This document shows positions 36,232 through 51,497 of a stretch of DNA of 64,000 nucleotides, in pieces. Source of the DNA: Sphingobacterium multivorum (GTDB lineage Bacteria; Bacteroidota; Bacteroidia; Sphingobacteriales; Sphingobacteriaceae); the NCBI RefSeq assembly GCF_039511225.1, contig NZ_CP154261.1, forward strand, positions 2,418,001 to 2,482,000. The letters run 5' to 3'. The translations under genes were made by a program, and so were the position numbers. The notes beneath the pieces were generated by a model. That model saw only the letters and a program-made list of their open reading frames with translations. It ran no database searches and was not told the origin of the DNA. Within the stretch, counting starts at the first letter, position 1. Each line of letters starts with the position of its first letter.

Positions 36232-37197
36232 ATGAATGGGTATAGAATTTTAGGAATAGCTTTCATTAGTTTTGCAATTATATCCTGTGGAAAAAATGAT
36301 TTATCACAGGATAATTTAGGTACTGGAGAGGAGGGAAAGAATGGGACTAGCCCGGGACCGGCCCCGGAAAACAAAGTTCCGGAGCTTAGCATATGGCATT
36401 GGGGCTCTGAAAGACGTCCTTATGGTATCAACAATGTGATTATGGATGACGCCAGGATGAGGGAAACCATTGACAGCTATATTCAAAATAAAGTTACTCG
36501 GGTATATGGCGGATATTCGAAAATTCCTGCACACCCGATACAGAAAGAAAATCTTGCCAAATGGAACAGAAAACTTAAACAACTGGGCATAAAATCTATT
36601 TATCTAATCGGAAATGAACAGTGGATATATCCTGAAAATCGTCAAATGATGATAGATTATATTCTGGAATATTACGTTAAATTTAATCTTTCCGTCGATG
36701 TAGATGCAAAACTTCAAGGTTTGCATTTGGATCTTGAGCCACATCAGCTAAAAGAATGGAGTGCAGCATCTATACATAGGAAGCGTGAACTTTTGTATTT
36801 ATTGAAAGATACCTACCGAGATCTTAGGCTAACCTTACTACATTATGGGATGGAAAAGGATGAAATAATGGCTGATATTCCAACTTGGTTTGATGAAATG
36901 AGTGCTATCGGCTGGGCATCAGAAATCGAAAAATACAATTGGTTTAACGATACAATGAACTACATCAACGGATTCACCATTATGGCTTATGAATTAGCAT
37001 CAATACCAACCATCGTTCAGCGTACCAATTGGGAAAGGAATAATTTTAAAGCAAACATTCAAATCGGACTCGATGCTGATGAGATAGGTCGTATCTGGAA
37101 TAGCAAATCAGCCATAATTAATGCATTGCGGGAAATTAATGTGCAAACCCAAGCGCCAATTGCTGTCCATAATTATACGACATTTATGGAACAATAG
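36232..37197 (+). CDS. TIM-barrel-like lipoprotein, glycosidase-like
   Basis: 321 residues; signal with lipobox (AIISCGKN). After a glycine/proline-rich linker, the body alternates strands and helices in a barrel pattern: SIWHWGSERRPYGINNVIM, NKVTRVYGGYSKIPA, IKSIYLIGNEQWIYP, then GLHLDLEPHQLKEW, which resembles the acid-rich strand 4 of GH18-like enzymes, and INGFTIMAYELASIP. I do not recognise the family; an acidic glycosidase-like site is inferred from LDLEP. It lies 3 kb upstream of the exopolysaccharide operon, with an AraC regulator between. Confidence 0.5.
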   Translation: MNGYRILGIAFISFAIISCGKNDLSQDNLGTGEEGKNGTSPGPAPENKVPELSIWHWGSERRPYGINNVIMDDARMRETIDSYIQNKVTRVYGGYSKIPAHPIQKENLAKWNRKLKQLGIKSIYLIGNEQWIYPENRQMMIDYILEYYVKFNLSVDVDAKLQGLHLDLEPHQLKEWSAASIHRKRELLYLLKDTYRDLRLTLLHYGMEKDEIMADIPTWFDEMSAIGWASEIEKYNWFNDTMNYINGFTIMAYELASIPTIVQRTNWERNNFKANIQIGLDADEIGRIWNSKSAIINALREINVQTQAPIAVHNYTTFMEQ

Positions 37198-37406: not shown

Positions 37407-38528
37407 ATGAAAGGGAGGGAATTCAGAAGATCGCTAAAAGATATGTTTGTTACGACCCTAACCATAATAACGCTATTTTGCGCAGGCTATCTCCTCTTTT
37501 TGAATTGTTCGAAAAGACAGATGTTATGCAACAAATTCCTGATGATTTTCTTGCTAATTACCGCATGTCATCAAATTTTAATTTGTGGTTTAAAGATTTG
37601 GTCAGCGGACGAGGTCTATTTGGTCCTTTGCTTACCCTTTGGGCTACTGTTTGGGCCCGCTATTTTATTGTTGGTAAGTAGCTTAAAGTCCAAAAATATA
37701 GGTTGGCAGTTTATTTTCCACTTTATACCATTTGTCGGTAGCTTATTGTTGTTTGGTATTGTAAAATTGAAATGGTGGATCTTAGATGGATTTGATGTTG
37801 ACGACATCTTGTTGGTTCACTTAATGTCATTCGTGCATTTTTCCAGTTATCTGACGTATGTGGGGTTAAAAAATCAGCAGGAAACGGGTGTAGATCTATT
37901 TAGGCTGATGAAAAGATATGGGATTAAAGTTTATTTTCCTATCGTATTTATATTTCTACTCATTGTAGAAATTCTGATTATGATCGGTCACTATAGAAAT
38001 GTCATTATCCATGAGATATTTGTGCTTTCATTTTTTTTAACGTTCCTTTCGTCTTTGTTTATATTTTATTTCACTTATCTGCGACAATATGAGGGAACAA
38101 ATTCAGAAGAACTCACATTAACCATCGCAGTAAGCGATGCATTATTGTGTAAAATAGAAAATATTGACTCGAATGTAACATCGTTGGATAAACGGGAACA
38201 GCTTTATCGTCGACAGCTCGAACAGTTTATCCATACCAAAGCTTATTTGGATACCGAACTTAATAAGGAGAAGTTCAGTCATCAGCTTGGAATACCGCTG
38301 AACAATATATCTCCGTTCCTTAAAAAGGAGTTCGGCAGAGGATTTAATGCCTTTATTAACCACCTTCGCGTGAATTATGCAGCAAAACAGTTGAAAAATA
38401 CTGAACTTCAAACGACAGTTGATCATTTGAGTTTTGTCTGCGGATTCAATTCACGAGCTTCATTCTACAGAAGTTTTCAGGCCGAATTTGGCTGTACACC
38501 CCTACAGTTCTGCAAAACTGCTTCCTAG
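37407..38528 (+). CDS. membrane AraC-type transcriptional regulator
   Basis: 373 residues. The N-terminal 220 residues hold about seven hydrophobic segments (LTIITLFCAGYLLFLN, LVLCLPFGLLFGPAILLLV, VYFPIVFIFLLIVEILIMI and others). The C-terminal 110 residues are an AraC DNA-binding domain (LNKEKFSHQLGIPLNNISPF, FVCGFNSRASFYRSFQAEFG). Such membrane AraC proteins of Bacteroidota bind DNA from the membrane and read envelope signals. It lies directly upstream of the exopolysaccharide operon leader, so it is the first suspect as its regulator. Confidence 0.88.
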   Translation: MKGREFRRSLKDMFVTTLTIITLFCAGYLLFLNCSKRQMLCNKFLMIFLLITACHQILICGLKIWSADEVYLVLCLPFGLLFGPAILLLVSSLKSKNIGWQFIFHFIPFVGSLLLFGIVKLKWWILDGFDVDDILLVHLMSFVHFSSYLTYVGLKNQQETGVDLFRLMKRYGIKVYFPIVFIFLLIVEILIMIGHYRNVIIHEIFVLSFFLTFLSSLFIFYFTYLRQYEGTNSEELTLTIAVSDALLCKIENIDSNVTSLDKREQLYRRQLEQFIHTKAYLDTELNKEKFSHQLGIPLNNISPFLKKEFGRGFNAFINHLRVNYAAKQLKNTELQTTVDHLSFVCGFNSRASFYRSFQAEFGCTPLQFCKTAS

Positions 38529-39260: not shown

Positions 39261-40433
39261 ATGTATTATGATTACTACCTCTATTATTTAAGCTACATAG
39301 GAGCTTTGTACAATGGTTACCCATTGGTCGTAAGGATTACCGCAGCCATGGTATTGGGGCTATTGGGCCTTGTCTTGTTCGGTATTGTCCGATTACTCTA
39401 TATCGGCTATCGCATTAACAGGACGGAAAAACAGCGGAGGAAAATTCGTGAGCATTTCGATGAAAAGTTGGCTTTTGTTATGACAGCAAAGAATAACTAT
39501 GATGTGGATGAAATCCGAGAACTGTTACACTACGATGTTTCGAGATCAAAAAAATGGAGAACGGATGCATTGACCGATATCGTTCTCCACGTAAAAAATG
39601 AGTCATTCAAAAGCGGTCGGCTAAATGAGCTTAATTACAAAAATTGTTTAGAAGCACTCAGACTCATGGGTTTTTGGGAAAAGCGTATGCGTACACCTGG
39701 ATTGTCCAAACGTAGGGAGGCTTTACAGGTTGTGGGTGAGTTCAACATTGGTGTGAACAGCGGCATTCTTTCCAAATCCATGTTTCATAAAGACAAAGAT
39801 CTACGAAAGACCGCACGAGATTTATATGCAAGTCAGGAAAATTATAATCCCTTTCGTTTTATGGAGGAGAATTTCGATGAAGCATTTACACAATTGGATA
39901 AATTGCGCCTTCATGCTACATTGTTGAAACGTTCGCGGGAAATTAAGCTTCCAAATCTTCTCCGTTGGATTAATAATTCCAGAAATGTTAACTATATCCA
40001 GTTCATTATACAGGAAATAGAGTTTTTTGAGCAAAAAGAAGCTTGTCCTGCTCTTCTTGAAATGTTGGAAACGCAGGAAAATAGAGATATCCGCGCACAA
40101 ATTGTTTTGACCTTGGGGAAGCTTGAATACAATGATGGTATTTCAGAGCTTATCAACCGATTTTCCCTTGAATCGTCTATTGTACGTGAGGCAATTGTGA
40201 AAGCAATGGGCAAATTGAAATCCAAGAAAGTCATCCCGTTTTTAACCGATACCTATTGCTTTTCTGACGATGATCATTTAAAAATGTTAATCGCCCGTTC
40301 CATCAAGGCACAGGGAAAAGAAGGGGAAATTTTACTTCTCCATCTTCAGGAGGAGGCGATTTTGCAGTCGCGTGAAAAGGAGAAATTACTGTTAAATCAA
40401 GTGTTTGCAGAAAGATTAGTTATATCAGTTTAA
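39261..40433 (+). CDS. membrane-anchored HEAT-repeat protein of EPS operon
   Basis: 390 residues. One hydrophobic anchor near the N-terminus (AAMVLGLLGLVLFGIVRLLY) leaves the rest in the cytosol. The C-terminal half is HEAT-like: RAQIVLTLGKLEYNDGISEL, IVREAIVKAMGKLKSKKVIP and LKMLIARSIKAQGKEGEILL. HEAT proteins form scaffolds; here it would dock to the glycosyltransferase whose gene starts 12 bp downstream. First gene of a five-gene run with gaps under 15 bp or overlaps, until a 140 bp break. Confidence 0.8.
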   Translation: MYYDYYLYYLSYIGALYNGYPLVVRITAAMVLGLLGLVLFGIVRLLYIGYRINRTEKQRRKIREHFDEKLAFVMTAKNNYDVDEIRELLHYDVSRSKKWRTDALTDIVLHVKNESFKSGRLNELNYKNCLEALRLMGFWEKRMRTPGLSKRREALQVVGEFNIGVNSGILSKSMFHKDKDLRKTARDLYASQENYNPFRFMEENFDEAFTQLDKLRLHATLLKRSREIKLPNLLRWINNSRNVNYIQFIIQEIEFFEQKEACPALLEMLETQENRDIRAQIVLTLGKLEYNDGISELINRFSLESSIVREAIVKAMGKLKSKKVIPFLTDTYCFSDDDHLKMLIARSIKAQGKEGEILLLHLQEEAILQSREKEKLLLNQVFAERLVISV

Positions 40434-40445
40434 AATTTATTTAAG

Positions 40446-41861
40446 ATGGTCTATTTTTTTACCTATCTCATTTATTTCTATGCCACGACATTGGGTATTT
40501 CCTATGTTGTACTTATGGTAATGAGCTATTATAATACCCTCCGTTATCGCTATCGATACACGAAGCGGGAAGAGAACTATTTGCTGGAGTTTCCCGATAA
40601 GGCGCCAGGAGTCTCTATTGTCGCACCTGCGTTTAATGAAGAGGTCATCATCTTGGATAGTGTCAATTCGCTGTTGAATCTCGATTACCCCAACTTTGAA
40701 GTTGTCGTCGTGAATGACGGTAGCAGAGACAAAACCTTGGATATCCTTTTAACGGAATTTGAGCTGGAAGAAGTTCCGTATTATCTGGTTTATAAAGTGA
40801 ATTGTAAACCTATTAAACGCGTGTTTCGGTCAAAAAATCCAGCATATAGCCGGCTGATCGTGTTGGATAAAGAAAATGGCGGAACAAAAGCGGATGCTAT
40901 CAATGCCGGGATCAATGTGGTTCAGAACGATTACTTTATCAATACCGATGTTGATTGTATTCTTGCTAAAGACAGCCTCAGTAAAATCGTCCTCCCTATT
41001 TTGGATTCAGAAAAACAGGTCATAGCCGTGGGGGCCACCATGCGTATGGCAAATGGCTGCCGGATCGAAAATGGCGAGATCACACGGGTAAGACCTCCGA
41101 AAAGTTTGATTCCTTTATTTCAGGAAACAGAATATTTAAGATCTTATCTGGTAGGAAAAATGGGATGGGATATGATCAATGCTGTTCCAAATGTTTCTGG
41201 AGGATTTGGCCTATTTGATTCTAAAGTGATTATTGCAGTAGGTGGTTTTGACTCTTCTTCGCATGCCGAAGACATGGATATCACTACGCGGATTTCTGCC
41301 TATATGCTTGAAAATAATCGTGAATATAGGATCGCTCAATGTCCTTACAGTTTGTGTTGGACTGAGGGACCGCCAAATTTAAGCATATTGAACCGTCAAA
41401 GAAGCCGTTGGGGAAGAGGCCTGTTTCAGTTTCTTGTCGATCACCGGAAAATGATTTTCAATAAGGATTATGGACGCTTAGGCTTTGTTGTATTACCCTA
41501 TATGATCATGTTCGAATTCCTAGCTCCTATTATCGAATTTACAGGTCTTCTATTCATGATTTTTCTGCTGATTACCCACCAGATCAACTTCGATACATTC
41601 TGGATGATGCTGCTGTATGCCTACCTTATTGGATTTTCAGTATCTGTTATCACAGTTTCCTACGATCTGGTTTTGGGAAAACTTTACCGGAACTTTTGGG
41701 AATATCTCAAGCTGGTATTATTCTCAGCATTTGAACCGATATTATATCACCCGTTTGTCATCATTTTCACCTTGCGGGGCTATATACAATATTTAACACG
41801 GAAAGATATCAAATGGGGAAATATGACTCGTAAGGGGTTTTCTCAGACAAAAAATGCTTAA
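40446..41861 (+). CDS. processive family 2 glycosyltransferase, EPS synthase
   Basis: 471 residues. An N-terminal membrane helix, a GT2 catalytic domain, and at least three C-terminal helices (MIFLLITHQINF, LLYAYLIGFSVSVITVSY). All processive-synthase motifs are present: PAFNEE then VVVNDGSRDKT (D91), NTDVD (D168, D170), the catalytic pair AEDMD (E275, D276), and Q318RSRW. This is the architecture of PgaC, BcsA and hyaluronan synthases, which polymerise a UDP-sugar and extrude the chain. No PilZ domain is visible. Product sugar is unknown. Confidence 0.92.
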   Translation: MVYFFTYLIYFYATTLGISYVVLMVMSYYNTLRYRYRYTKREENYLLEFPDKAPGVSIVAPAFNEEVIILDSVNSLLNLDYPNFEVVVVNDGSRDKTLDILLTEFELEEVPYYLVYKVNCKPIKRVFRSKNPAYSRLIVLDKENGGTKADAINAGINVVQNDYFINTDVDCILAKDSLSKIVLPILDSEKQVIAVGATMRMANGCRIENGEITRVRPPKSLIPLFQETEYLRSYLVGKMGWDMINAVPNVSGGFGLFDSKVIIAVGGFDSSSHAEDMDITTRISAYMLENNREYRIAQCPYSLCWTEGPPNLSILNRQRSRWGRGLFQFLVDHRKMIFNKDYGRLGFVVLPYMIMFEFLAPIIEFTGLLFMIFLLITHQINFDTFWMMLLYAYLIGFSVSVITVSYDLVLGKLYRNFWEYLKLVLFSAFEPILYHPFVIIFTLRGYIQYLTRKDIKWGNMTRKGFSQTKNA

Positions 41862-41872
41862 ATGAATTAATA

Positions 41873-44692
41873 ATGTTTAAAAATATCCATAAAACGAAGT
41901 TACTTTTAGCTCTTTCAGCATCAATTTATTTCACTCCGGTTGCTTACGGGCAGCGGGCATCGACCACAATTGATAGAAATGAAAAGGCCTACGAAATAAA
42001 CGAATTATATAAACAGGGGAAATGGGATACGGGAAAGAAGATCGCAGATGCTATTCTCGAAAAAAATCCGGAGGATTCAGATATGCGTATGCTTGTGGGG
42101 AAATATTATATTCACCGCAAGGACTATAGCCGAGCAAGATATGAGCTTGTCAAATCCCTCAAATCGGCGCCCGCAAATGTCGAGTCTAAGCATATGTTGG
42201 TAGCTGTTGAAACAGAGACCGGTCGATATTCAAGTGCAATTTGCTACGTCAATGAATTGTTGGAGGTTAATCCCTATTGGAAAGGGCTTTGGCGTAAGAA
42301 AATTGAGCTCTACCGTCACCTGGGTAATCATGTGGAGGCAGACCGCTTGCTCAAGCGGATTTCCCAAATCTATCCGGAGGATAGCCAGCTAAAAAAAGAT
42401 CAGGCTTATCTGGTCGAACAGCGGCTTCTGCAGGTAAAAAAGGAAGGGAAGATGGATCAATCTATTGAAGCGACTAAGAAAATGATTGATGAGCGTCCAC
42501 TTCAATACTGGAACTATATGCCTTTAATCGACAGCTACATTAAGGTTGGAGATTATGCCAATGCCCTGGTTTATACTGAACGAGCGTTACATCAATTTCC
42601 TGCAAGTGATGCGCTGTTTCAGAAGAAAATCGCTATCCTTGAGCACGATCAACGTTATCCTGAGATTCTATCGCTCCTCAATGCCCGCATCAAAGGTGGA
42701 GCCGGAAATATCCCTATGCTGCAGAAACAATATCGCTATTTCCTAAAGGAAACGGCACGGAGTGCTAAAAATAATGAACCAGCAACACTTTACGGAAAAA
42801 TTTTTGAGGAAGCACCAAAAAACAAGGAAGCTTTTAATTATGTGTTCAACGACCTTCTAGCGAAATCACAATACGACGAAGCACTTGCAGTGCTGAAGAA
42901 GCACAAGGTGCATGTGGGCGGTAGCAAACGAATCGATATGCTAGAACTTATGGTTCACAAAAGAATGGGAAATCAGTCCAGGGTAACCGCGTTGACCAAA
43001 TATCTCTTTACTAAATATCCCGGAGATACGGAACTCAGAGAGTCAGTTGTTGGAATCAGCCTTCAGGAGGCCAAGAACAATGTGTTGGAGAGTAATGTGG
43101 CAGAGGCAATCCTGGACTGGCAGGAAGCAATACGCTATGGCGACCCAGAATCTATACGTATTGCAAAACGTGGGCTTTACGGCGCTTACATGACATCGGG
43201 ACGCTACGGCGAAGCACTTTTGAGCTTGAATGATTTGCTATCTGCTGAGCCGGATAACCTAGATCTACTGTTAAAGAAATCTGAGATTTACATGAAACAG
43301 GGCGCATATAAGCTTGCGCTGGAGACCTATGAGCAGGTGCTAACAAAGTCATTGCCCGAAGATCGCCAACGTTATATCGGTGGTTACAGCGAAATGATTT
43401 CACCAATAGTCAGAAGTATGCGTGAGGATTATAAGCTTCCTGAAGCGCAGCGACTGGTCAAAGGATGGCTTATTATTGACCCCACCAATCAAGAAGCACT
43501 GCTCAATATGATCAATATCAGCTTTATGTTAAAGGATCAGGAAGCGATGCTTCTGTATGCACAACGTGCCGAAAAACAATACGATGATCCTAAGTTCAAA
43601 ATTAAATTGGCGGAGGCACTAAACCAACAGCCCGAACAAATTCCTCATTCTTGGAAGATGCTTCATGAACAGGTGGAAAAACGCCCTTACCATGAACCAT
43701 TGGTTAATACGTTTGTTAGCACAACGCAGGTGTATGCTAAGCAGCTGCTCAATGAAAAGAATCACCAGGCCGCGCTATCCGTTATTGACAAAGGATTACT
43801 GTGTAAAGACAACAAAGATCTTAAGCATTTAAAAGGTCTCGCTTTCGAAGGTCTTCGAAACTTTGATTCCGCGTATTACTATCAGAAGTTCTACGAACCG
43901 TCGCTCCTTGAATTGGATGATTTCAAAGCACATCTCAATTATTTAGCGCAGAAAACTTTTGAAAATTATATTGCCATTTCGCATTTACGTGCAAGATTTG
44001 GTGATGATAATAGAATATCCTCAATTTCCTCTTTCGAATATGGACGCTTGCTAGCGGATGGTTCTTCCTATGTGGGACGTTTACACTATACAGGCAGGGA
44101 GGAAGGTAAAGGGGTACAAGCGCAGGTGGAGTGGAGCAGACCCTGGACTACTAAATTCTCAACACGAATTGACGCTGCCCTTGCCAACAAATATTTTGCA
44201 AAGATCGCTGTTGATGCAGCAGGGCTTTACGAGTGGAAACCTACTTGGGAAGCAGAGGTTGGTCTTGGTTATAGAAGATTTTTTACTGGACAGCACCTTT
44301 TCAACCTTAATGTGGGCTTGACGAAAGAAATTGCTGATTTTCGTCTGGGAGCTAAATGGAACAACTACTTGCTGGACAGCGAAGGGGAGCGTATTTACCT
44401 ATATAGTGTGCTTGCAAAGGCGCAGTATTTTATGAACAACCGAAAAAACTATCTTATAGCGACTGGAAGTATAGGTAGCGCGCCGGATGCCGACCTATTG
44501 AACAATCAGCTATATAATAGTTTCAATGTTTTTAATGCGATGGTCGGTGCGGGTGTGGGCAGGTCGTTTTCGAAAAATGTAAGTGCAAGCATGATGGGTA
44601 CTTGGTATAATTTCCAAGCTGCAGGCACTGTCAATGGAAGCAATTACAAAAACTTGTATAACCTTTATGTTCAGCTTCATGTCTCATTTTAA
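41873..44692 (+). CDS. TPR and YaiO-type outer-membrane barrel protein
   Basis: 939 residues with a signal peptide (LLLALSASIYFTPVAYGQ). Residues about 30-690 are TPR repeats (KIADAILEKNPEDSDMRMLV, YSRARYELVKSLKSAPANVE, ALVYTERALHQFPASDALFQ). Residues about 700-939 form a beta-barrel of the YaiO family: GRLLADGSSYVGRLHYTGRE and repeated alternating strands, ending in VQLHVSF with the C-terminal phenylalanine typical of outer-membrane barrels. The layout mirrors PgaA, the outer-membrane exporter with periplasmic TPRs. It likely guides and exports the polymer. Its stop overlaps the next start. Confidence 0.88.
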   Translation: MFKNIHKTKLLLALSASIYFTPVAYGQRASTTIDRNEKAYEINELYKQGKWDTGKKIADAILEKNPEDSDMRMLVGKYYIHRKDYSRARYELVKSLKSAPANVESKHMLVAVETETGRYSSAICYVNELLEVNPYWKGLWRKKIELYRHLGNHVEADRLLKRISQIYPEDSQLKKDQAYLVEQRLLQVKKEGKMDQSIEATKKMIDERPLQYWNYMPLIDSYIKVGDYANALVYTERALHQFPASDALFQKKIAILEHDQRYPEILSLLNARIKGGAGNIPMLQKQYRYFLKETARSAKNNEPATLYGKIFEEAPKNKEAFNYVFNDLLAKSQYDEALAVLKKHKVHVGGSKRIDMLELMVHKRMGNQSRVTALTKYLFTKYPGDTELRESVVGISLQEAKNNVLESNVAEAILDWQEAIRYGDPESIRIAKRGLYGAYMTSGRYGEALLSLNDLLSAEPDNLDLLLKKSEIYMKQGAYKLALETYEQVLTKSLPEDRQRYIGGYSEMISPIVRSMREDYKLPEAQRLVKGWLIIDPTNQEALLNMINISFMLKDQEAMLLYAQRAEKQYDDPKFKIKLAEALNQQPEQIPHSWKMLHEQVEKRPYHEPLVNTFVSTTQVYAKQLLNEKNHQAALSVIDKGLLCKDNKDLKHLKGLAFEGLRNFDSAYYYQKFYEPSLLELDDFKAHLNYLAQKTFENYIAISHLRARFGDDNRISSISSFEYGRLLADGSSYVGRLHYTGREEGKGVQAQVEWSRPWTTKFSTRIDAALANKYFAKIAVDAAGLYEWKPTWEAEVGLGYRRFFTGQHLFNLNVGLTKEIADFRLGAKWNNYLLDSEGERIYLYSVLAKAQYFMNNRKNYLIATGSIGSAPDADLLNNQLYNSFNVFNAMVGAGVGRSFSKNVSASMMGTWYNFQAAGTVNGSNYKNLYNLYVQLHVSF

Positions 44693-46802
44693 ACTCTTTT
44701 TATCCGTTTTGCTATTATGTCCGCTTTACCTATCTTGTAAGGATAAAGGTGTAGACTTTTCGCGTGATGAGTTTTTGATAACATCCAACGGAGACGAAGA
44801 GAGCACTGTGGCGGCAGATTACCTTTACCAACATATGAGCGGTCGTGCAGGTGCAGCCAAAAGCTTGAATTTAATACGTTCAGATGAAAATTTGTCCAAT
44901 TATCATGGCGAAAGGATCTATCTGGAAGTAGTGCCTGAAATGGATCATGATTTTGAAATAAAAAACGGAGTCCATAGCCTTGCTATTTTCGGAAAAGATA
45001 GGTCTGTATTAAGATGGCTAAGTTATATGCTAATCGATCATATCAGCAAATTTCAGCCACTGGAGGTTGCCGACTTACCGCCAGCATATATAGATTTTGA
45101 GGATAGGACCGGTTCCTTTGCTTTTCGTTACCGAGAGCCACATTTTTTGCCGAACCTAGATGAAAATAATCTTGGCATATTGAATACGCATAGTATTGAG
45201 CGCGAGTGGGGAATCTGGGGACATAATTTATATAAGGTGCTTCCGCAGGATTTGCCTTCCGATGCCTATGCACTTGTCGATGGGAAACGGAACAGACAGC
45301 AATATTGTTTTTCTTCAAACACCATGTTTCAAGCCCTGGAGCGCTTTATTAGCGATCATTATGGCGTGAGCGAATCCAAATGGTTTATGATCGCTCCCAA
45401 TGACAATGATCTGGTATGTAGCTGTTCAAAATGTCGTAAGCTGGGCAATAAACCTGGCGAGGCAACTGCTGGAGTTGTTGCTCTTTTAAACAGGTTGGCA
45501 ACACGCTATCCGTCGCATCATTTTTTTACGATGGCTTATCGGACTACAAAAAATGCCCCTTCGACACAAACAAATAAGAACGTCGGCGTTTTTATCAGTA
45601 CGATTGACCTGCCCACGCAGGGGGACCTTGACCTCAATGACGCACATGTGCAGGCATTTTCAAGTCTGGTAAATGATTGGCGGAAACAATCACACCAACT
45701 ATTTCTTTGGGACTACGTAAGTAATTTTGATGACTACCTTACCCCATATCCCGTCTTATCCAGAACGAAATCGCACCTCCGATTTTTTCAATCATTGGGT
45801 TGTCAAGGAATTTTCATGAATGGGAGTGGTTATGACTACTCGAGTTTCGACGATGTAAAAACCTATGTGTTAAGTGCATTGATGATTGATATGCAGCTAT
45901 CGGTAGAGAAGCTGGTGACCAACTATTTCAAAAGATTTTATCCCGTCACTGCCAGCTTGCTAACATCTTATTATCTACAATTGGAAAGAAGAGCCGAAAA
46001 GGAAAACAGCGCTGCTGACATATACACAGGTTTTTATACGGCTAAGAGAAATTATTTTGATTCAGAAAAATTCCTGGAACTATTCAAGGATATAAAGCGT
46101 CTGGAGCCACAGACAAATGGAGTAGAAAAATTACGTCTAGCTAAGCTGATAACCGCGATGAATTATACTTCATTGCAGATTTGCTATCAGCAAGGGTTTA
46201 GGGCCGGTGGATTTATGAAAATAAAAGATGAAGAACTTGTCATCGCGAATACAATTAATGAAGCGTTATTAGGTCTGGAAAAAAATCAGGGAAAAGGAGG
46301 TGTGTCCATCTACAAGGAAGAAGAGGGGCAGCTGAGCATATACTGCCATGAATGGCGAGATCAGTTGGAGAGACCTCATAAAATAAATAAAATAGCCGGG
46401 TTAAGCGTTTTATCGGCTGACGGGGAACACGAAAACAGTCATTTCCTATTCGACAATGTACTTGGCTTCCGGTCGGATTTTAACCAGGGATGGTTTCAGT
46501 GCTCAGCTGACATTGTCATCGACAAGATTTTTTTTCGTCCTTTTAAACAGACGCAGCATTTGAGTATTCGCTTCCTTCTGAACGAGCGTCATCGAATGTT
46601 ACCACCAGAGGCGATAGAAATATTTGTAAATGATCGTTTTGTTGATCGGATCAGCACAAGCGATCTTGACAAGGAAAATGGATTAATGATATTAAATAAG
46701 GATTTAAGGATCAATGAAAATGAAAAACTATATATTAAAATCTACAAAAATAGAACAATCAGAAATTCGGTTATTGCCTGCGATGAGATACAGTTATTTT
46801 AG
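44679..46802 (+). CDS. DUF4838 lipoprotein, periplasmic glycan-active protein
   Basis: About 707 residues from ATG 44679, which overlaps the previous stop by 14 bp; ATG 44667 is also possible. The lipobox LYLSC lies at C20. An N-terminal domain (40-150) resembles the glucuronidase-type alpha/beta domain that often precedes DUF4838. The core has the family string SKWFMIAPNDNDLVCSCSKC (cysteines about 247-252, likely binding metal) and a TIM-barrel-like part. C-terminal residues look like a carbohydrate-binding sandwich (IRFLLNERHRMLPPEAIEIF). In the operon it takes the PgaB-like place: a lipoprotein that edits the nascent glycan. Activity unproven. Confidence 0.8.
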   Translation: MSHFKLFLSVLLLCPLYLSCKDKGVDFSRDEFLITSNGDEESTVAADYLYQHMSGRAGAAKSLNLIRSDENLSNYHGERIYLEVVPEMDHDFEIKNGVHSLAIFGKDRSVLRWLSYMLIDHISKFQPLEVADLPPAYIDFEDRTGSFAFRYREPHFLPNLDENNLGILNTHSIEREWGIWGHNLYKVLPQDLPSDAYALVDGKRNRQQYCFSSNTMFQALERFISDHYGVSESKWFMIAPNDNDLVCSCSKCRKLGNKPGEATAGVVALLNRLATRYPSHHFFTMAYRTTKNAPSTQTNKNVGVFISTIDLPTQGDLDLNDAHVQAFSSLVNDWRKQSHQLFLWDYVSNFDDYLTPYPVLSRTKSHLRFFQSLGCQGIFMNGSGYDYSSFDDVKTYVLSALMIDMQLSVEKLVTNYFKRFYPVTASLLTSYYLQLERRAEKENSAADIYTGFYTAKRNYFDSEKFLELFKDIKRLEPQTNGVEKLRLAKLITAMNYTSLQICYQQGFRAGGFMKIKDEELVIANTINEALLGLEKNQGKGGVSIYKEEEGQLSIYCHEWRDQLERPHKINKIAGLSVLSADGEHENSHFLFDNVLGFRSDFNQGWFQCSADIVIDKIFFRPFKQTQHLSIRFLLNERHRMLPPEAIEIFVNDRFVDRISTSDLDKENGLMILNKDLRINENEKLYIKIYKNRTIRNSVIACDEIQLF

Positions 46803-47331
46803 TGTTTTGTTAAGTGTTTTAATGAGTCTCCTGTCATCGAGTTGTTTAGACGTCAAAAACAAGAAGACAACAATAGTGGTAGAAGACAGTCAGCGACATT
46901 ATTACCCTTTACTGGCTGGCCAGCAAAAAGACCTGTCTTTTAATATTAAGAATACAGGGAAAAATCCATTGATAATCACAGATATTATTACTTCTTGTGG
47001 TTGCCTGAAAGTTAATGGTGAATCAGGTGCATTTTCTGTCCCTCCGGGCAAAGAGCGGTTGCTCTCGTTAAGTTATAATAGTGCAAAAAACATAGGCTAT
47101 GTCAAACATTATGTCACCTTATACGGTAATTTTGAAAAATCACCTTTTCGGGAGATTATTTTTGATATCAATGTTGTTCCCAACGCCATGTATACAAAGG
47201 ATTATGAGGAGCTGTATACAGAGGAAATGAATGCCGGTGGGGGGGTAAAGCGTATGGTGGACGGAGAAGAAAATAATAAAGGATATTACATGGATGAGGA
47301 CTTTGAAAAAAGTATTCATGACAATAAGTAG
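46783..47331 (+). CDS. DUF1573 lipoprotein of EPS operon
   Basis: 182 residues from ATG 46783, overlapping the end of the previous gene by 20 bp; an upstream in-frame ATG (46714) would lack a proper signal. The lipobox LLSSSC makes it a lipoprotein. The DUF1573 immunoglobulin-like domain is clear: FNIKNTGKNPLIITDIITSC with the conserved SCGC (ITSCGCLKV) and VPPGKERLLSLSYNSAKNIG. Function unknown; the acidic tail is unusual. Last gene of the five-gene run. Confidence 0.85.
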   Translation: MRYSYFSVLLSVLMSLLSSSCLDVKNKKTTIVVEDSQRHYYPLLAGQQKDLSFNIKNTGKNPLIITDIITSCGCLKVNGESGAFSVPPGKERLLSLSYNSAKNIGYVKHYVTLYGNFEKSPFREIIFDINVVPNAMYTKDYEELYTEEMNAGGGVKRMVDGEENNKGYYMDEDFEKSIHDNK

Positions 47332-49613: not shown

Positions 49614-49886
49614 TTATTGGACGCTATTGCTCCAAGTTTGTTGGAAATGTTGATCTGCTATTTGGCAGAAAGTTTTCTGAGTAAACGAAAATGTGCTCAG
49701 TTGAGGTTGTGCAGGAGATTTTCTAACCTTAGTTTTGCCAACATGCGCCAATGAGAAGTCGGAAAAATCTAACTGCTCGCAAGAGACCATCATATCATTT
49801 AGCTCATGGGGATGAGCTCTTTGATGGCTTGGAGCATTCCTAACAATTATTAAAATGAAGAGCAAGAGAGTGAATAGGGAAACCAA
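49614..49886 (-). CDS. possible small membrane-anchored protein
   Basis: A 90-codon frame starting with a hydrophobic run (MVSLFTLLLFILIIVRNA) and then a polar tail with coding-like composition (AHVGKTKVRKSPAQPQLSTF). Its first codons overlap, on the opposite strand, the start of the HTH gene at 49855, so the two would be transcribed divergently from overlapping 5' ends. No family recognised; it may be a chance frame. A hairpin AACCATTT/AAATGGTT (49594-49614) lies at its end and that of the preceding regulator. Confidence 0.35.
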   Translation of the reverse strand: MVSLFTLLLFILIIVRNAPSHQRAHPHELNDMMVSCEQLDFSDFSLAHVGKTKVRKSPAQPQLSTFSFTQKTFCQIADQHFQQTWSNSVQ

Positions 49887-50184
49887 AATTGATGTCGTAT
49901 TTGCTATAGTCTATGGTAATATGACGATGAAGGAAGCGACAGAAAAATATGATGTCGCAAAGAAAAGCACAATAATTTCGTGGATTAGAACCCTTTTGCC
50001 AGAAGCAAAATTAATGCTGGAAGCAACTGAAAGCAAGGTGACAGGAGGAGCAGATTTTGAGAATATCGGCGTGAAGATGTATGAACGGATTGCGCGTCTT
50101 GAACAAGAAAAAAATATATTGGAGCGTGAAAGAGCTGCATTACGTGCAAAGTTGCTACACCTTGAGGCAAAATCGATAGAATAA
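49855..50184 (+). CDS. orphan transposase-OrfA-like HTH protein
   Basis: 109 residues. The N-terminal half is a homeodomain-like helix-turn-helix of the IS3 OrfA type (AIVYGNMTMKEATEKYDVA followed by a STIISWIRTLLPE recognition helix). The C-terminal half is a leucine-zipper-like coiled coil (RIARLEQEKNILERERAALR). There is no OrfB, DDE transposase or terminal repeat nearby, so it is a remnant or a domesticated DNA-binding protein. It is followed by the CotH gene 53 bp downstream. Confidence 0.65.
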   Translation: MKSKRVNRETKIDVVFAIVYGNMTMKEATEKYDVAKKSTIISWIRTLLPEAKLMLEATESKVTGGADFENIGVKMYERIARLEQEKNILERERAALRAKLLHLEAKSIE

Positions 50185-50237: not shown

Positions 50238-51497
50238 ATGAAAATGAAACATAGAATAAAGTTAGGAATCTACGGGATTATGCTAGGTACAATCATAATT
50301 ACAAGCTGCACCAAAAAGCCTGCTGACATAACGGGGGAAAAAGAAGTTGAAGAATTGCCAATCTTGGATAAAAGTATTGAAGCAAGTGTGCCACATATCT
50401 ATATTAATATCGAAGGCAGTGCCGAAGTGGTTGATAAAGATACTTATCTCAATGCGGAGGTTCATATTGTTGGTAATGGCAGATTCGCCAATATGGATAA
50501 AGTAAAGACAAAGATTAAAGGAAGAGGAAACTCTACCTGGAGCAAACCTAAAAAACCGTATCGGTTAAAATTGGATAAAAAGGCGATTGTACTTGGCCTC
50601 CCTGCAGCTAAAGATTGGGTTTTATTGGCAAATTATAATGATTATACCTTAATGTGCAACGCTGTAGCAATGAAAATGGGCAAACAATTAGGCATGCCTT
50701 ATACAAACGATATTATCGCTGTTGATTTAACGGTCAATGGCGAGTATCGAGGAAACTATAATTTGACACAACAGGTGGAAGTGAAAGAAAACAGGGTAGA
50801 TTTAGGAGATGGGGGCGTTTTGTGGGAAATAGACAATTACTTTGATGAAGCTTATAAATTTAGGAGTGCAAAAGCCAACCTTCCTGTAATGTTGAAAGAC
50901 CCGGACCCAGAATCTCCGGAGCAATTTAGTACTTGGAAAGCTGAATTTCAGTCATTTGAAGATAAGCTGTATGAAAAGAGTTTTCCAAATAATAATTATG
51001 GAGAGATTTTTGATAAACAGCAATTTGTTAATTTTTTAATTGTTAATATGCTTGCCTGGAATAATGAGGTCAATCAGCCTAAAAGCGTTTACATGCATAA
51101 AAAGGTTAATGGGAAATATACGATGGGACCAATTTGGGACTTCGACTTCGGTTTTGGTTTCAGCGAAGACCATGGAAGGACCTATTTCAATTATCTAGAA
51201 ATGAACTTGATCAGGGACGATGACGAACGTATAGGATCCAAATTCTATCAGCATCTTCTCCAAGATCCGGACCTAAGAAGATTACTAACGCAGACCTGGA
51301 AGGATTATCGCAGTCAAAAGTTTGAAGAGTTAATGCAATTCATCGAGATTTATGCCGCTCAGATTAGGGATTCTCAAAAGAAAGATTTCAATATTTGGAA
51401 AACAGGTGATAACAATTTAGCGCTCAATAAGGCGAAGCTAAAAACATTTTTGCGTCAAAGAGTGAAAGTGATCGATAATTATGTAATGACCTTATAG
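50238..51497 (+). CDS. CotH-family protein kinase lipoprotein
   Basis: 419 residues with a lipobox (IIITSCTKK), so exported. The CotH kinase signature is present: the N-terminal IKGRGNSTWSKPKKPYRL, the ATP-lysine region KDWVLLANYNDYTLMCNAV, LTQQVEVKENRVDL and the metal-binding GPIWDFDFGFGF. CotH proteins phosphorylate secreted proteins, in spores the coat proteins CotB/CotG. In Bacteroidota the substrates are unknown. The gene lies between an orphan HTH gene and an AraC regulator, 3 kb after the EPS operon; a role in modifying surface proteins is inference. Confidence 0.9.
   Translation: MKMKHRIKLGIYGIMLGTIIITSCTKKPADITGEKEVEELPILDKSIEASVPHIYINIEGSAEVVDKDTYLNAEVHIVGNGRFANMDKVKTKIKGRGNSTWSKPKKPYRLKLDKKAIVLGLPAAKDWVLLANYNDYTLMCNAVAMKMGKQLGMPYTNDIIAVDLTVNGEYRGNYNLTQQVEVKENRVDLGDGGVLWEIDNYFDEAYKFRSAKANLPVMLKDPDPESPEQFSTWKAEFQSFEDKLYEKSFPNNNYGEIFDKQQFVNFLIVNMLAWNNEVNQPKSVYMHKKVNGKYTMGPIWDFDFGFGFSEDHGRTYFNYLEMNLIRDDDERIGSKFYQHLLQDPDLRRLLTQTWKDYRSQKFEELMQFIEIYAAQIRDSQKKDFNIWKTGDNNLALNKAKLKTFLRQRVKVIDNYVMTL

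What the first reader, a model, noticed from the sequence alone, without database searches (positions are those of the whole stretch)
39261..47331. Five-gene exopolysaccharide synthesis and export operon of non-Pga composition
The sequence shows a HEAT membrane protein, a processive GT2 with all DDE/QxxRW motifs, a signal peptide-TPR-YaiO outer-membrane barrel, a DUF4838 lipoprotein and a DUF1573 lipoprotein in one run with 11-12 bp gaps or overlaps. Known Pga-type systems pair a GT2 synthase with a TPR-barrel exporter and a periplasmic lipoprotein enzyme. Here the barrel is of the YaiO family, the periplasmic enzyme is DUF4838 instead of a deacetylase, and a HEAT scaffold and a DUF1573 protein are added. 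I infer a distinct EPS machine; the polymer is unknown. It is the best candidate for an undescribed system in the window.
Basis: partly seen in the sequence, partly recalled or inferred. Interest (0 to 1): 0.85.

Follow-up and report, generated by a model that had tools for sequence, protein, structure and literature searches.

The report
Conserved Bacteroidota sugar-polymer secretion operon
This is a conserved set of five genes that very probably builds a sugar polymer inside the cell and threads it out through a dedicated outer-membrane channel; it resembles known biofilm-polymer machines but uses a different set of parts, and I found no report of it having been tested.

Summary
Five same-strand genes at 39261-47331 encode a one-TM HEAT protein, a processive-type GT2, a signal peptide-TPR-YaiO barrel, a DUF4838 lipoprotein and a DUF1573 lipoprotein, with gaps of 12 and 11 bp and overlaps of 14 and 20 bp. 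The full order recurs in 16 loci (window included) and without DUF1573 in 7 more. It is one branch of a wider family: 39 of 41 HEAT matches adjoin a GT2 of the same clade, and 46 of 48 such GT2 loci hold a YaiO barrel. DUF4838 is tied to it: 11 of the 12 highest-scoring DUF4838 matches lie in the operon, none of 18 weaker ones. The DUF4838 model has a GH115/GH20/GH84/GH67-type fold; a paper labels a Polaribacter DUF4838 gene GH163. The GT2 is nearest PgaC among references tried but far below its cut-off; no deacetylase, PgaD or PilZ is in the operon. Best reading: a synthase-dependent exopolysaccharide machine of Bacteroidota, possibly for a beta-HexNAc polymer, under HEAT plus receiver-domain or AraC control. 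Export and polymer identity are inferred. New variant of a known kind; ten paper searches listed no description.

The parts
39261..40433 (+). Membrane-anchored HEAT-repeat protein (390 aa, TM 22-40, HEAT part predicted cytosolic)
   Evidence: PF13646 59.8 bits; one hydrophobic segment followed by basic residues; 39 of 41 matches adjoin this GT2 clade
40446..41861 (+). Family 2 glycosyltransferase, processive type, putative polymer synthase/inner-membrane translocator (471 aa)
   Evidence: PF00535/PF13641; D91, DVD 168-170, ED 275-276, QxxRW 318-322, four hydrophobic segments; PgaC_IcaA 118.7 bits but cut-off 422.3; 27% identity over 383 columns to E. coli PgaC
41873..44692 (+). Signal peptide, helical-repeat (TPR) region 32-694, about 18 helix pairs, and YaiO beta-barrel 698-938; putative outer-membrane exporter (939 aa)
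   Evidence: PF19413 59.6 bits, TPR families; TIGR04390 32.0 bits at its cut-off of 32; AF2 model pLDDT 82.1, pTM 0.44, 14 barrel strands by DSSP
44679..46802 (+). DUF4838 lipoprotein, glycoside-hydrolase fold, putative polymer-processing or polymer-binding periplasmic protein
   Evidence: PF16126 153.9 bits; start by lipobox LYLSC; AF2 pLDDT 87.6; GH115/GH20/GH84/GH67 folds, best Z 15.1
46783..47331 (+). DUF1573 lipoprotein (HYDIN-type Ig-like), putative accessory
   Evidence: PF07610 60.0 bits, PF22544 29.1; start by lipobox; present in 16 of 23 DUF4838-type loci
37407..38528 (+). Membrane AraC-type regulator upstream, likely control gene of the locus
   Evidence: HTH_18 48.8 bits, 6 hydrophobic segments; homologue directly upstream of HEAT in 9 of 9 named Sphingobacterium loci L045-L053
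47475..47888 (+). Small protein with a C-terminal hydrophobic segment, function unknown, linked to the operon
   Evidence: No Pfam match over cut-off; segment 119-137; homologue directly downstream in 9 of 9 L045-L053
47944..49539 (+). AraC-type regulator downstream (531 aa from first ATG), with hydrophobic segments and weak TPR matches
   Evidence: HTH_18 45.6 bits, TPR_8 14.2 bits under cut-off; homologue in the same place in 9 of 9 L045-L053

Best explanation
A synthase-dependent exopolysaccharide machine of Bacteroidota. Inferred steps: the GT2 polymerises a nucleotide sugar (best guess a HexNAc, UDP-GlcNAc) and passes the chain through the inner membrane; the membrane-anchored HEAT protein binds the cytosolic side of the GT2 and gates it, in place of c-di-GMP/PilZ/PgaD control, with input from a stand-alone receiver protein in most relatives without DUF4838 and from flanking AraC-type regulators in most five-gene loci; the TPR superhelix of the YaiO protein spans the periplasm and leads the chain to its barrel; the DUF4838 (GH163-like) lipoprotein binds and trims or proof-reads the chain in the periplasm; DUF1573 is an accessory. 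Shown: gene content, motifs, predicted folds, order conservation. Not shown: synthesis, export, polymer, protein contacts.
For: Motifs and families. Same order in 16 loci with DUF1573 and 7 without, in five family-level groups (f1, f33, f78, f36, f54). 39 of 41 HEAT matches adjoin a GT2 of this clade and 46 of 48 GT2 loci hold YaiO; the two without lie at contig ends. DUF4838: 11 of 12 strong versus 0 of 18 weak matches in the operon. GT2 profile hits E. coli PgaC at 110 bits and YaiP at 50. Helical repeats plus barrel predicted in one chain, the layout of PgaA/BcsC/PelB (PMC9384988, passages). In Polaribacter dokdonensis a GT2 (MED152_03905, 8.8-fold) and a DUF4838/GH163 gene two locus tags of five away (MED152_03915, 18.5-fold) rise together (PMC9870897, Table 3 passage); that this is the same kind of operon is inferred from tag spacing, I did not see its sequence.
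Against: No polymer, export or contact is shown. GT2 and exporter scores against the PgaC, CelA and PgaA equivalog models are far below cut-off. The barrel is predicted with 14 strands, while PgaA and BcsC have 16, and the model's pTM is only 0.44. The DUF4838 proteins of this operon mostly lack a Glu that most other DUF4838 proteins have (1 of 16 versus 11 of 15), so hydrolysis is doubtful. The fold search puts GH115 alpha-glucuronidases first (Z 15.1), ahead of the beta-hexosaminidases (Z 14.8 at rmsd 9.9; 13.3), so it does not favour HexNAc; HexNAc rests on the GH163 label and the distant PgaC likeness. The operon is patchy: 8 of 36 same-genus genomes held (own included) have the five-gene set by the HEAT search.
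Confidence: 0.68

Rival explanations
1. The GT2 adds single sugars or short chains to a lipid or envelope glycan (LPS, sphingolipid or peptidoglycan-like), and YaiO/DUF4838 are remodelling proteins; no exported polymer.
For: GT2 families include many non-polymerising enzymes, several of which score weakly; some related loci carry a sulfatase-fold domain fused to the GT2 or CotH, which could act on other envelope molecules.
Against: QxxRW and the ED motif with C-terminal hydrophobic segments are those of processive synthases; a long repeat array plus barrel in one chain matches polymer exporters.
Confidence: 0.15
2. A catabolic locus: DUF4838/GH163 cuts an outside glycan, as in N-glycan use by Bacteroides.
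For: The characterised GH163 is a catabolic endo-enzyme (PMC10154615, passages); the Polaribacter paper listed its induction among enriched CAZymes and discussed use of polymers.
Against: No SusC/SusD family among the ten proteins between 36232 and 51497 that were scanned (genes further out were not scanned); the 18 weaker DUF4838 matches lack HEAT/GT2/YaiO nearby while 11 of 12 in this branch have them; a synthase and exporter are not parts of such loci.
Confidence: 0.05
3. A sub-variant of the best explanation (overlaps it, so the odds do not add up to 1): EPS machine, but the polymer is not a HexNAc polymer and the DUF4838 protein is a non-catalytic chain-binding chaperone.
For: The FEQ-motif Glu is missing in 15 of 16 aligned operon DUF4838 proteins, and residue 180 differs cleanly (16 of 16 G, 15 of 15 V); the fold is at least as close to alpha-glucuronidases.
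Against: D241, the putative beta4 acid, and WDY are kept (32 of 32; 31-32 of 32).
Confidence: 0.4

Closest known systems
pgaABCD (poly-beta-1,6-GlcNAc synthesis and export)
   Same: Processive GT2, repeat array plus barrel in one chain, periplasmic protein with a GH-type domain; GT2 nearest to PgaC among references tried
   Different: YaiO barrel (14 predicted strands) not PgaA-type; no CE4 deacetylase and no PgaD in the operon; HEAT and DUF1573 added; GH fold is DUF4838, not GH153. Whether such genes lie elsewhere in the genome was not searched.
E. coli yaiO-yaiX-yaiP-yaiS locus
   Same: YaiO barrel family with a GT2 in the same cluster
   Different: E. coli YaiO is 257 aa, too short for the repeat array (not scanned); YaiP is a more distant GT2 (50 bits); deacetylase YaiS and acyltransferase YaiX have no counterpart among the five; no HEAT or DUF4838 annotated there
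GH163 / DUF4838 glycoside hydrolases of Bacteroides
   Same: Same Pfam family PF16126; D241, H181, R151, WDY shared with other DUF4838 proteins
   Different: Operon branch lacks the FEQ Glu in 15 of 16 aligned and sits with a synthase and exporter
Bacterial cellulose (bcs) system
   Same: GT2 plus TPR-barrel BcsC plus periplasmic hydrolase BcsZ, by analogy (passages)
   Different: CelA 35 bits versus cut-off 699; no PilZ, BcsB or GH8 family in the five proteins

Membership tests
Pga (PNAG) system | PgaC/IcaA equivalog synthase | tested here: not met
   TIGR03937 118.7 bits, cut-off 422.3
Pga (PNAG) system | PgaA equivalog exporter | tested here: not met
   TIGR03939 34.2 bits, cut-off 366.65, best stretch in the TPR part; 14 predicted strands versus 16
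Pga (PNAG) system | PgaB with CE4 deacetylase and GH153 domains in the operon | tested here: not met
   No polysaccharide deacetylase family in the five proteins; rest of the genome not searched
Pga (PNAG) system | PgaD partner in the operon | tested here: not met
   Gaps of 12 and 11 bp and two overlaps leave no room for another gene
YaiO barrel family | PF19413 above the gathering score | tested here: met
   59.6 bits, cut-off 23.9
E. coli yai locus | YaiP-type GT2 and YaiS deacetylase beside YaiO | tested here: not met
   YaiP 50 bits versus PgaC 110 against the GT2 profile; no deacetylase family in the five proteins
GH163 | DUF4838 domain | tested here: met
   PF16126 153.9 bits; that DUF4838 equals GH163 rests on the label in PMC9870897 and on recall
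GH163 | Catalytic residues kept | tested here: inconclusive
   D241 kept in 32 of 32; FEQ Glu missing in 15 of 16 operon members aligned; no solved GH163 or published catalytic pair was at hand
GH163 | Endo-beta-N-acetylglucosaminidase activity | not testable with these tools
   Needs an enzyme assay
Synthase-dependent EPS secretion (general class) | Processive GT2 with QxxRW and TM helices | tested here: met
Synthase-dependent EPS secretion (general class) | TPR scaffold plus outer-membrane barrel | tested here: met
Synthase-dependent EPS secretion (general class) | c-di-GMP element (PilZ or PgaD) at the synthase | tested here: not met
   No PilZ family in the five proteins; no room for PgaD; such an element is frequent in the class, not required (recalled)
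Synthase-dependent EPS secretion (general class) | Exported polymer | not testable with these tools
   Needs mutant and polymer analysis

The most novel reading that the evidence does not exclude
A separate class of synthase-dependent polysaccharide secretion in Bacteroidota, in which a membrane HEAT scaffold driven by a stand-alone receiver domain (or AraC circuits) replaces c-di-GMP control of the synthase, the outer-membrane pore is a 14-stranded YaiO barrel, and a GH163-fold protein that has lost a conserved Glu acts as polymer chaperone; accessory CotH, sulfatase-fold or DUF4838 modules set the polymer type in each subfamily.
Probability: 0.3. Interest if true: 0.75.

Novelty: new variant of a known kind. 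Interest (0 to 1): 0.55.

Why it matters
Bacteroidota make biofilm and capsule polymers, but their synthase-dependent systems are little known (my own knowledge). This family recurs widely: HEAT matches in 23 of 196 genera of the sample, a lower bound since a single protein was the query; those that adjoin the GT2 fall in 13 family-level groups. The window's genome holds three copies, and G004, G012 and G016 two each. It offers a compact, testable five-gene unit with an unusual control module, and it would make DUF4838/GH163, known as catabolic, a part of polymer export.

Tried and rejected
Pga membership: rejected on equivalog cut-offs and missing PgaB/PgaD. Catabolic locus: disfavoured. Literature for a prior description: I saw listings only, several cut short (for example 40 of 41, 20 of 43, 12 of 61, 12 of 64, 15 of 58, 10 of 160); none of the listed titles describes a HEAT-GT2-YaiO machine. 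What I recall as the founding GH163 paper is not held. Sequence searches of DUF4838 against solved structures found no GH163: nothing, or a GH20 protein, 6q63, as the best hit, mainly through its C-terminal part. PMC8250860 (passages) has GT2 and CotH genes in a stalk cluster of Zetaproteobacteria; no link to YaiO or HEAT repeats appeared, so I left it. Foldseek on the whole YaiO model showed only helical-repeat proteins in the 50 rows listed, so the barrel was in effect not compared; absence of PgaA or BcsC there means nothing. Promoter and terminator scans gave 42 sites against 32.2 (sd 6.2) and 11 against 8.8 (sd 3.3) expected, of no use.

GT2 tree (32 of the 48 loci, made before the last 16 were fetched): the E. 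coli outgroup branches are very long, so the root and the order of DUF4838 gain or loss are open; GT2s without DUF4838 are one side of a branch (97/94), those with it are not (2 changes). GT2 loop NGG(T/S)KADA: the DUF4838-linked GT2s shown, and L064, have one residue more than the other relatives and YaiP; but E. coli PgaC has the same length as they do, so I do not use it as a mark of this system.

Limits and rows dropped: the genome searches scored at most 4 or 2 candidates per genome. One search shows up to seven genes on either side of DUF4838, and several of the weak matches lie on short contigs. In one search the operon group is 16 of the 23 known DUF4838 operon proteins, the other group 15 of the 18 weak ones (L110, G302 and G276 not aligned), and the orphan L104 was left out of both.
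Full report
OBSERVATION. The window lies in a 5.95-Mb single-contig genome. The nearest relatives that could be tied to names are Sphingobacterium (by equal contig length). The GT2 shows D91, D168/D170, E275-D276 and Q318xxRW322. Correct starts of the last two genes are 44679 and 46783, giving overlaps of 14 and 20 bp; the first two gaps are 12 and 11 bp.

CONSERVATION. I searched the HEAT protein, the most system-specific part, in 59 relatives (14 with a match at E 0.001) and in 395 genomes of the class (26 with a match). The two searches gave 18 and 28 places, 41 distinct. I held or fetched the neighbourhoods of all 41 and called genes by script. In 39 of 41 the HEAT gene adjoins a GT2 of one clade (over 250 bits to the profile). 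The two exceptions are L058, where GT2 to DUF1573 are missing, and L135. Nine further loci came by other routes (five more, L055 from the genome's own YaiO search, L105-L107 from the DUF4838 search), which makes 48 GT2 loci. Of these 48 have HEAT, 46 YaiO (the two without, L126 and L127, lie at contig ends), 23 DUF4838, and 16 of the 23 also DUF1573 (a 17th DUF1573 flag, L071, has no DUF4838 and lies on the other strand). The five-gene order is the same in all 16: the window, nine named Sphingobacterium records (L045-L053), L056, L057, L059, L060, L061 and L062. Seven loci have the first four only: L054 (a paralogue in the same genome), L063, L105-L107, L136, L139. Identity to the window's HEAT protein is 27-31% in L056, L057, L060 and L061 and 21-22% in L059 and L062. 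The operon is patchy: 8 of the 36 same-genus genomes (own included) have the five-gene set.

DUF4838 BELONGS TO THE MACHINE. A profile of the operon's DUF4838 proteins found 30 places in 28 of 395 genomes at E 1e-20, with at most two candidates scored per genome. Of the 12 that score 417 bits or more, 11 lie in HEAT-GT2-YaiO-DUF4838 operons and one (L104) does not. Of the 18 that score 353 or less, none has the HEAT, GT2-clade or YaiO gene in the stretch looked at (some of those contigs are short; L116 has an unrelated GT2 of 34 bits). The AF2 model (pLDDT 87.6) matches GH115, GH20, GH84 and GH67 enzymes: GH115 4zmh Z 15.1, rmsd 4.1 over 456; 6q63 Z 14.8, rmsd 9.9 over 485; human O-GlcNAcase 5vvt Z 13.3, rmsd 4.6 over 293; GH67 1l8n Z 12.7, rmsd 3.9 over 396. 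In a joint alignment D241 is kept in 32 of 32 and W343-D344-Y345 in 31-32. The Glu of an F-E-Q motif, present in 11 of 15 other DUF4838 proteins, is present in 1 of 16 operon proteins (L063). Residue 180 is G in 16 of 16 versus V in 15 of 15 (numbering starts at the codon after the ATG). Which residues are catalytic in GH163 I could not check, so this is a flag, not a proof of lost activity.

GT2 AND EXPORTER. The best curated model for the GT2 is PgaC_IcaA at 118.7 bits, far under its cut-off of 422.3; next come an XrtG-associated GT at 79.2 and CelA and NodC at about 35. The clade profile scores E. coli PgaC at 110 and YaiP at 50 bits. In a tree of 32 of these GT2s those without DUF4838 form one side of a branch (97/94), those with it do not. 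The exporter is modelled with 37 helices between residues 32 and 694, about 18 pairs, and a barrel of 14 strands (pLDDT 82.1 but pTM 0.44). PgaA and BcsC barrels have 16 strands; PgaA is predicted to have 8 TPRs, BcsC and PelB 19 (PMC9384988, passages).

CONTROL. By the script's rule a stand-alone receiver protein lies near 21 of 25 loci without DUF4838 and 4 of 23 with it. None of the 16 five-gene loci has it, but 12 of those 16 have AraC-type genes. In all nine L045-L053 loci a homologue of the window's membrane AraC regulator precedes the operon, and homologues of the small 137-aa protein and of the downstream AraC regulator follow it. I infer that the cytosolic HEAT domain gates the GT2 in place of c-di-GMP elements; no PilZ was found in the five proteins.

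OTHER PARTNERS. Relatives place CotH between YaiO and HEAT (L065, L066, L070, L073; beside HEAT in L132) or have the GT2 fused to a sulfatase-fold domain (L055 by Pfam; long homologues of that fusion in L069, L105, L137, L138, L140-L142). The core is therefore HEAT-GT2-YaiO, and the accessory enzyme probably tailors or trims the polymer. The likeness to LtaS is recalled.

LITERATURE. PMC9870897 (passages) lists in Polaribacter dokdonensis a GT2, MED152_03905 (8.8-fold), and a DUF4838/GH163 gene, MED152_03915 (18.5-fold), both higher with an alga in co-culture; the authors counted them as CAZymes outside PULs. The tag spacing fits GT2-YaiO-DUF4838, an inference. PMC10154615 (passages) describes one GH163, an endo-enzyme on GlcNAc-beta-1,2-Man. 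PMC5933820 (passages) names periplasmic hydrolases or lyases as parts of EPS machines (PgaB GH153, BcsZ, AlgL). My ten searches (listings only, several capped) showed no description of this machine in the held library, which lacks most subscription papers.

VERDICT. A conserved Bacteroidota operon that most likely makes and exports a polysaccharide by a synthase-dependent route with parts unlike Pga, Bcs or E. coli Yai. It is a new variant of a known kind; polymer, export and control remain to be shown.

Noticed in passing
L054 (own genome 3126000-3144000) and L055 (own genome 3541000-3556000): Two more members of the family in the same genome: receiver-HEAT-GT2-YaiO-DUF4838, and receiver-HEAT-GT2 fused to a sulfatase-fold domain with a convergent YaiO gene.
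   Followed up: yes
window 50238-51497: CotH-family protein with a lipobox (PF08757 131 bits) downstream of the AraC gene; CotH also sits inside related operons (L065, L066, L070, L073, L132) and downstream in L053.
   Followed up: partly
L058 (G028:C1:2338000-2356000): Same AraC-type genes and HEAT gene as in L056/L057, but GT2, YaiO, DUF4838 and DUF1573 are missing: looks like a natural deletion of the machine.
   Followed up: partly
window 36232-37197: 321-aa protein with a lipobox and no Pfam or NCBIfam match at E 0.1, upstream of the AraC gene.
   Followed up: no
window 49855-50184: Small protein with a weak match to an IS3 transposase model (20.8 bits, cut-off 160).
   Followed up: no
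L065, L066, L071, L126, L129, L130, L132, L134: A roughly 390-aa protein without a Pfam match at E 0.001 (L071:6754-7914) has homologues beside HEAT-GT2 in these loci, none of which has DUF4838; another unknown accessory.
   Followed up: no
L104 (G200:C31:100000-119000): DUF4838 protein of the operon's score range (463 bits) without HEAT, GT2 or YaiO nearby; it keeps the FEQ Glu.
   Followed up: no
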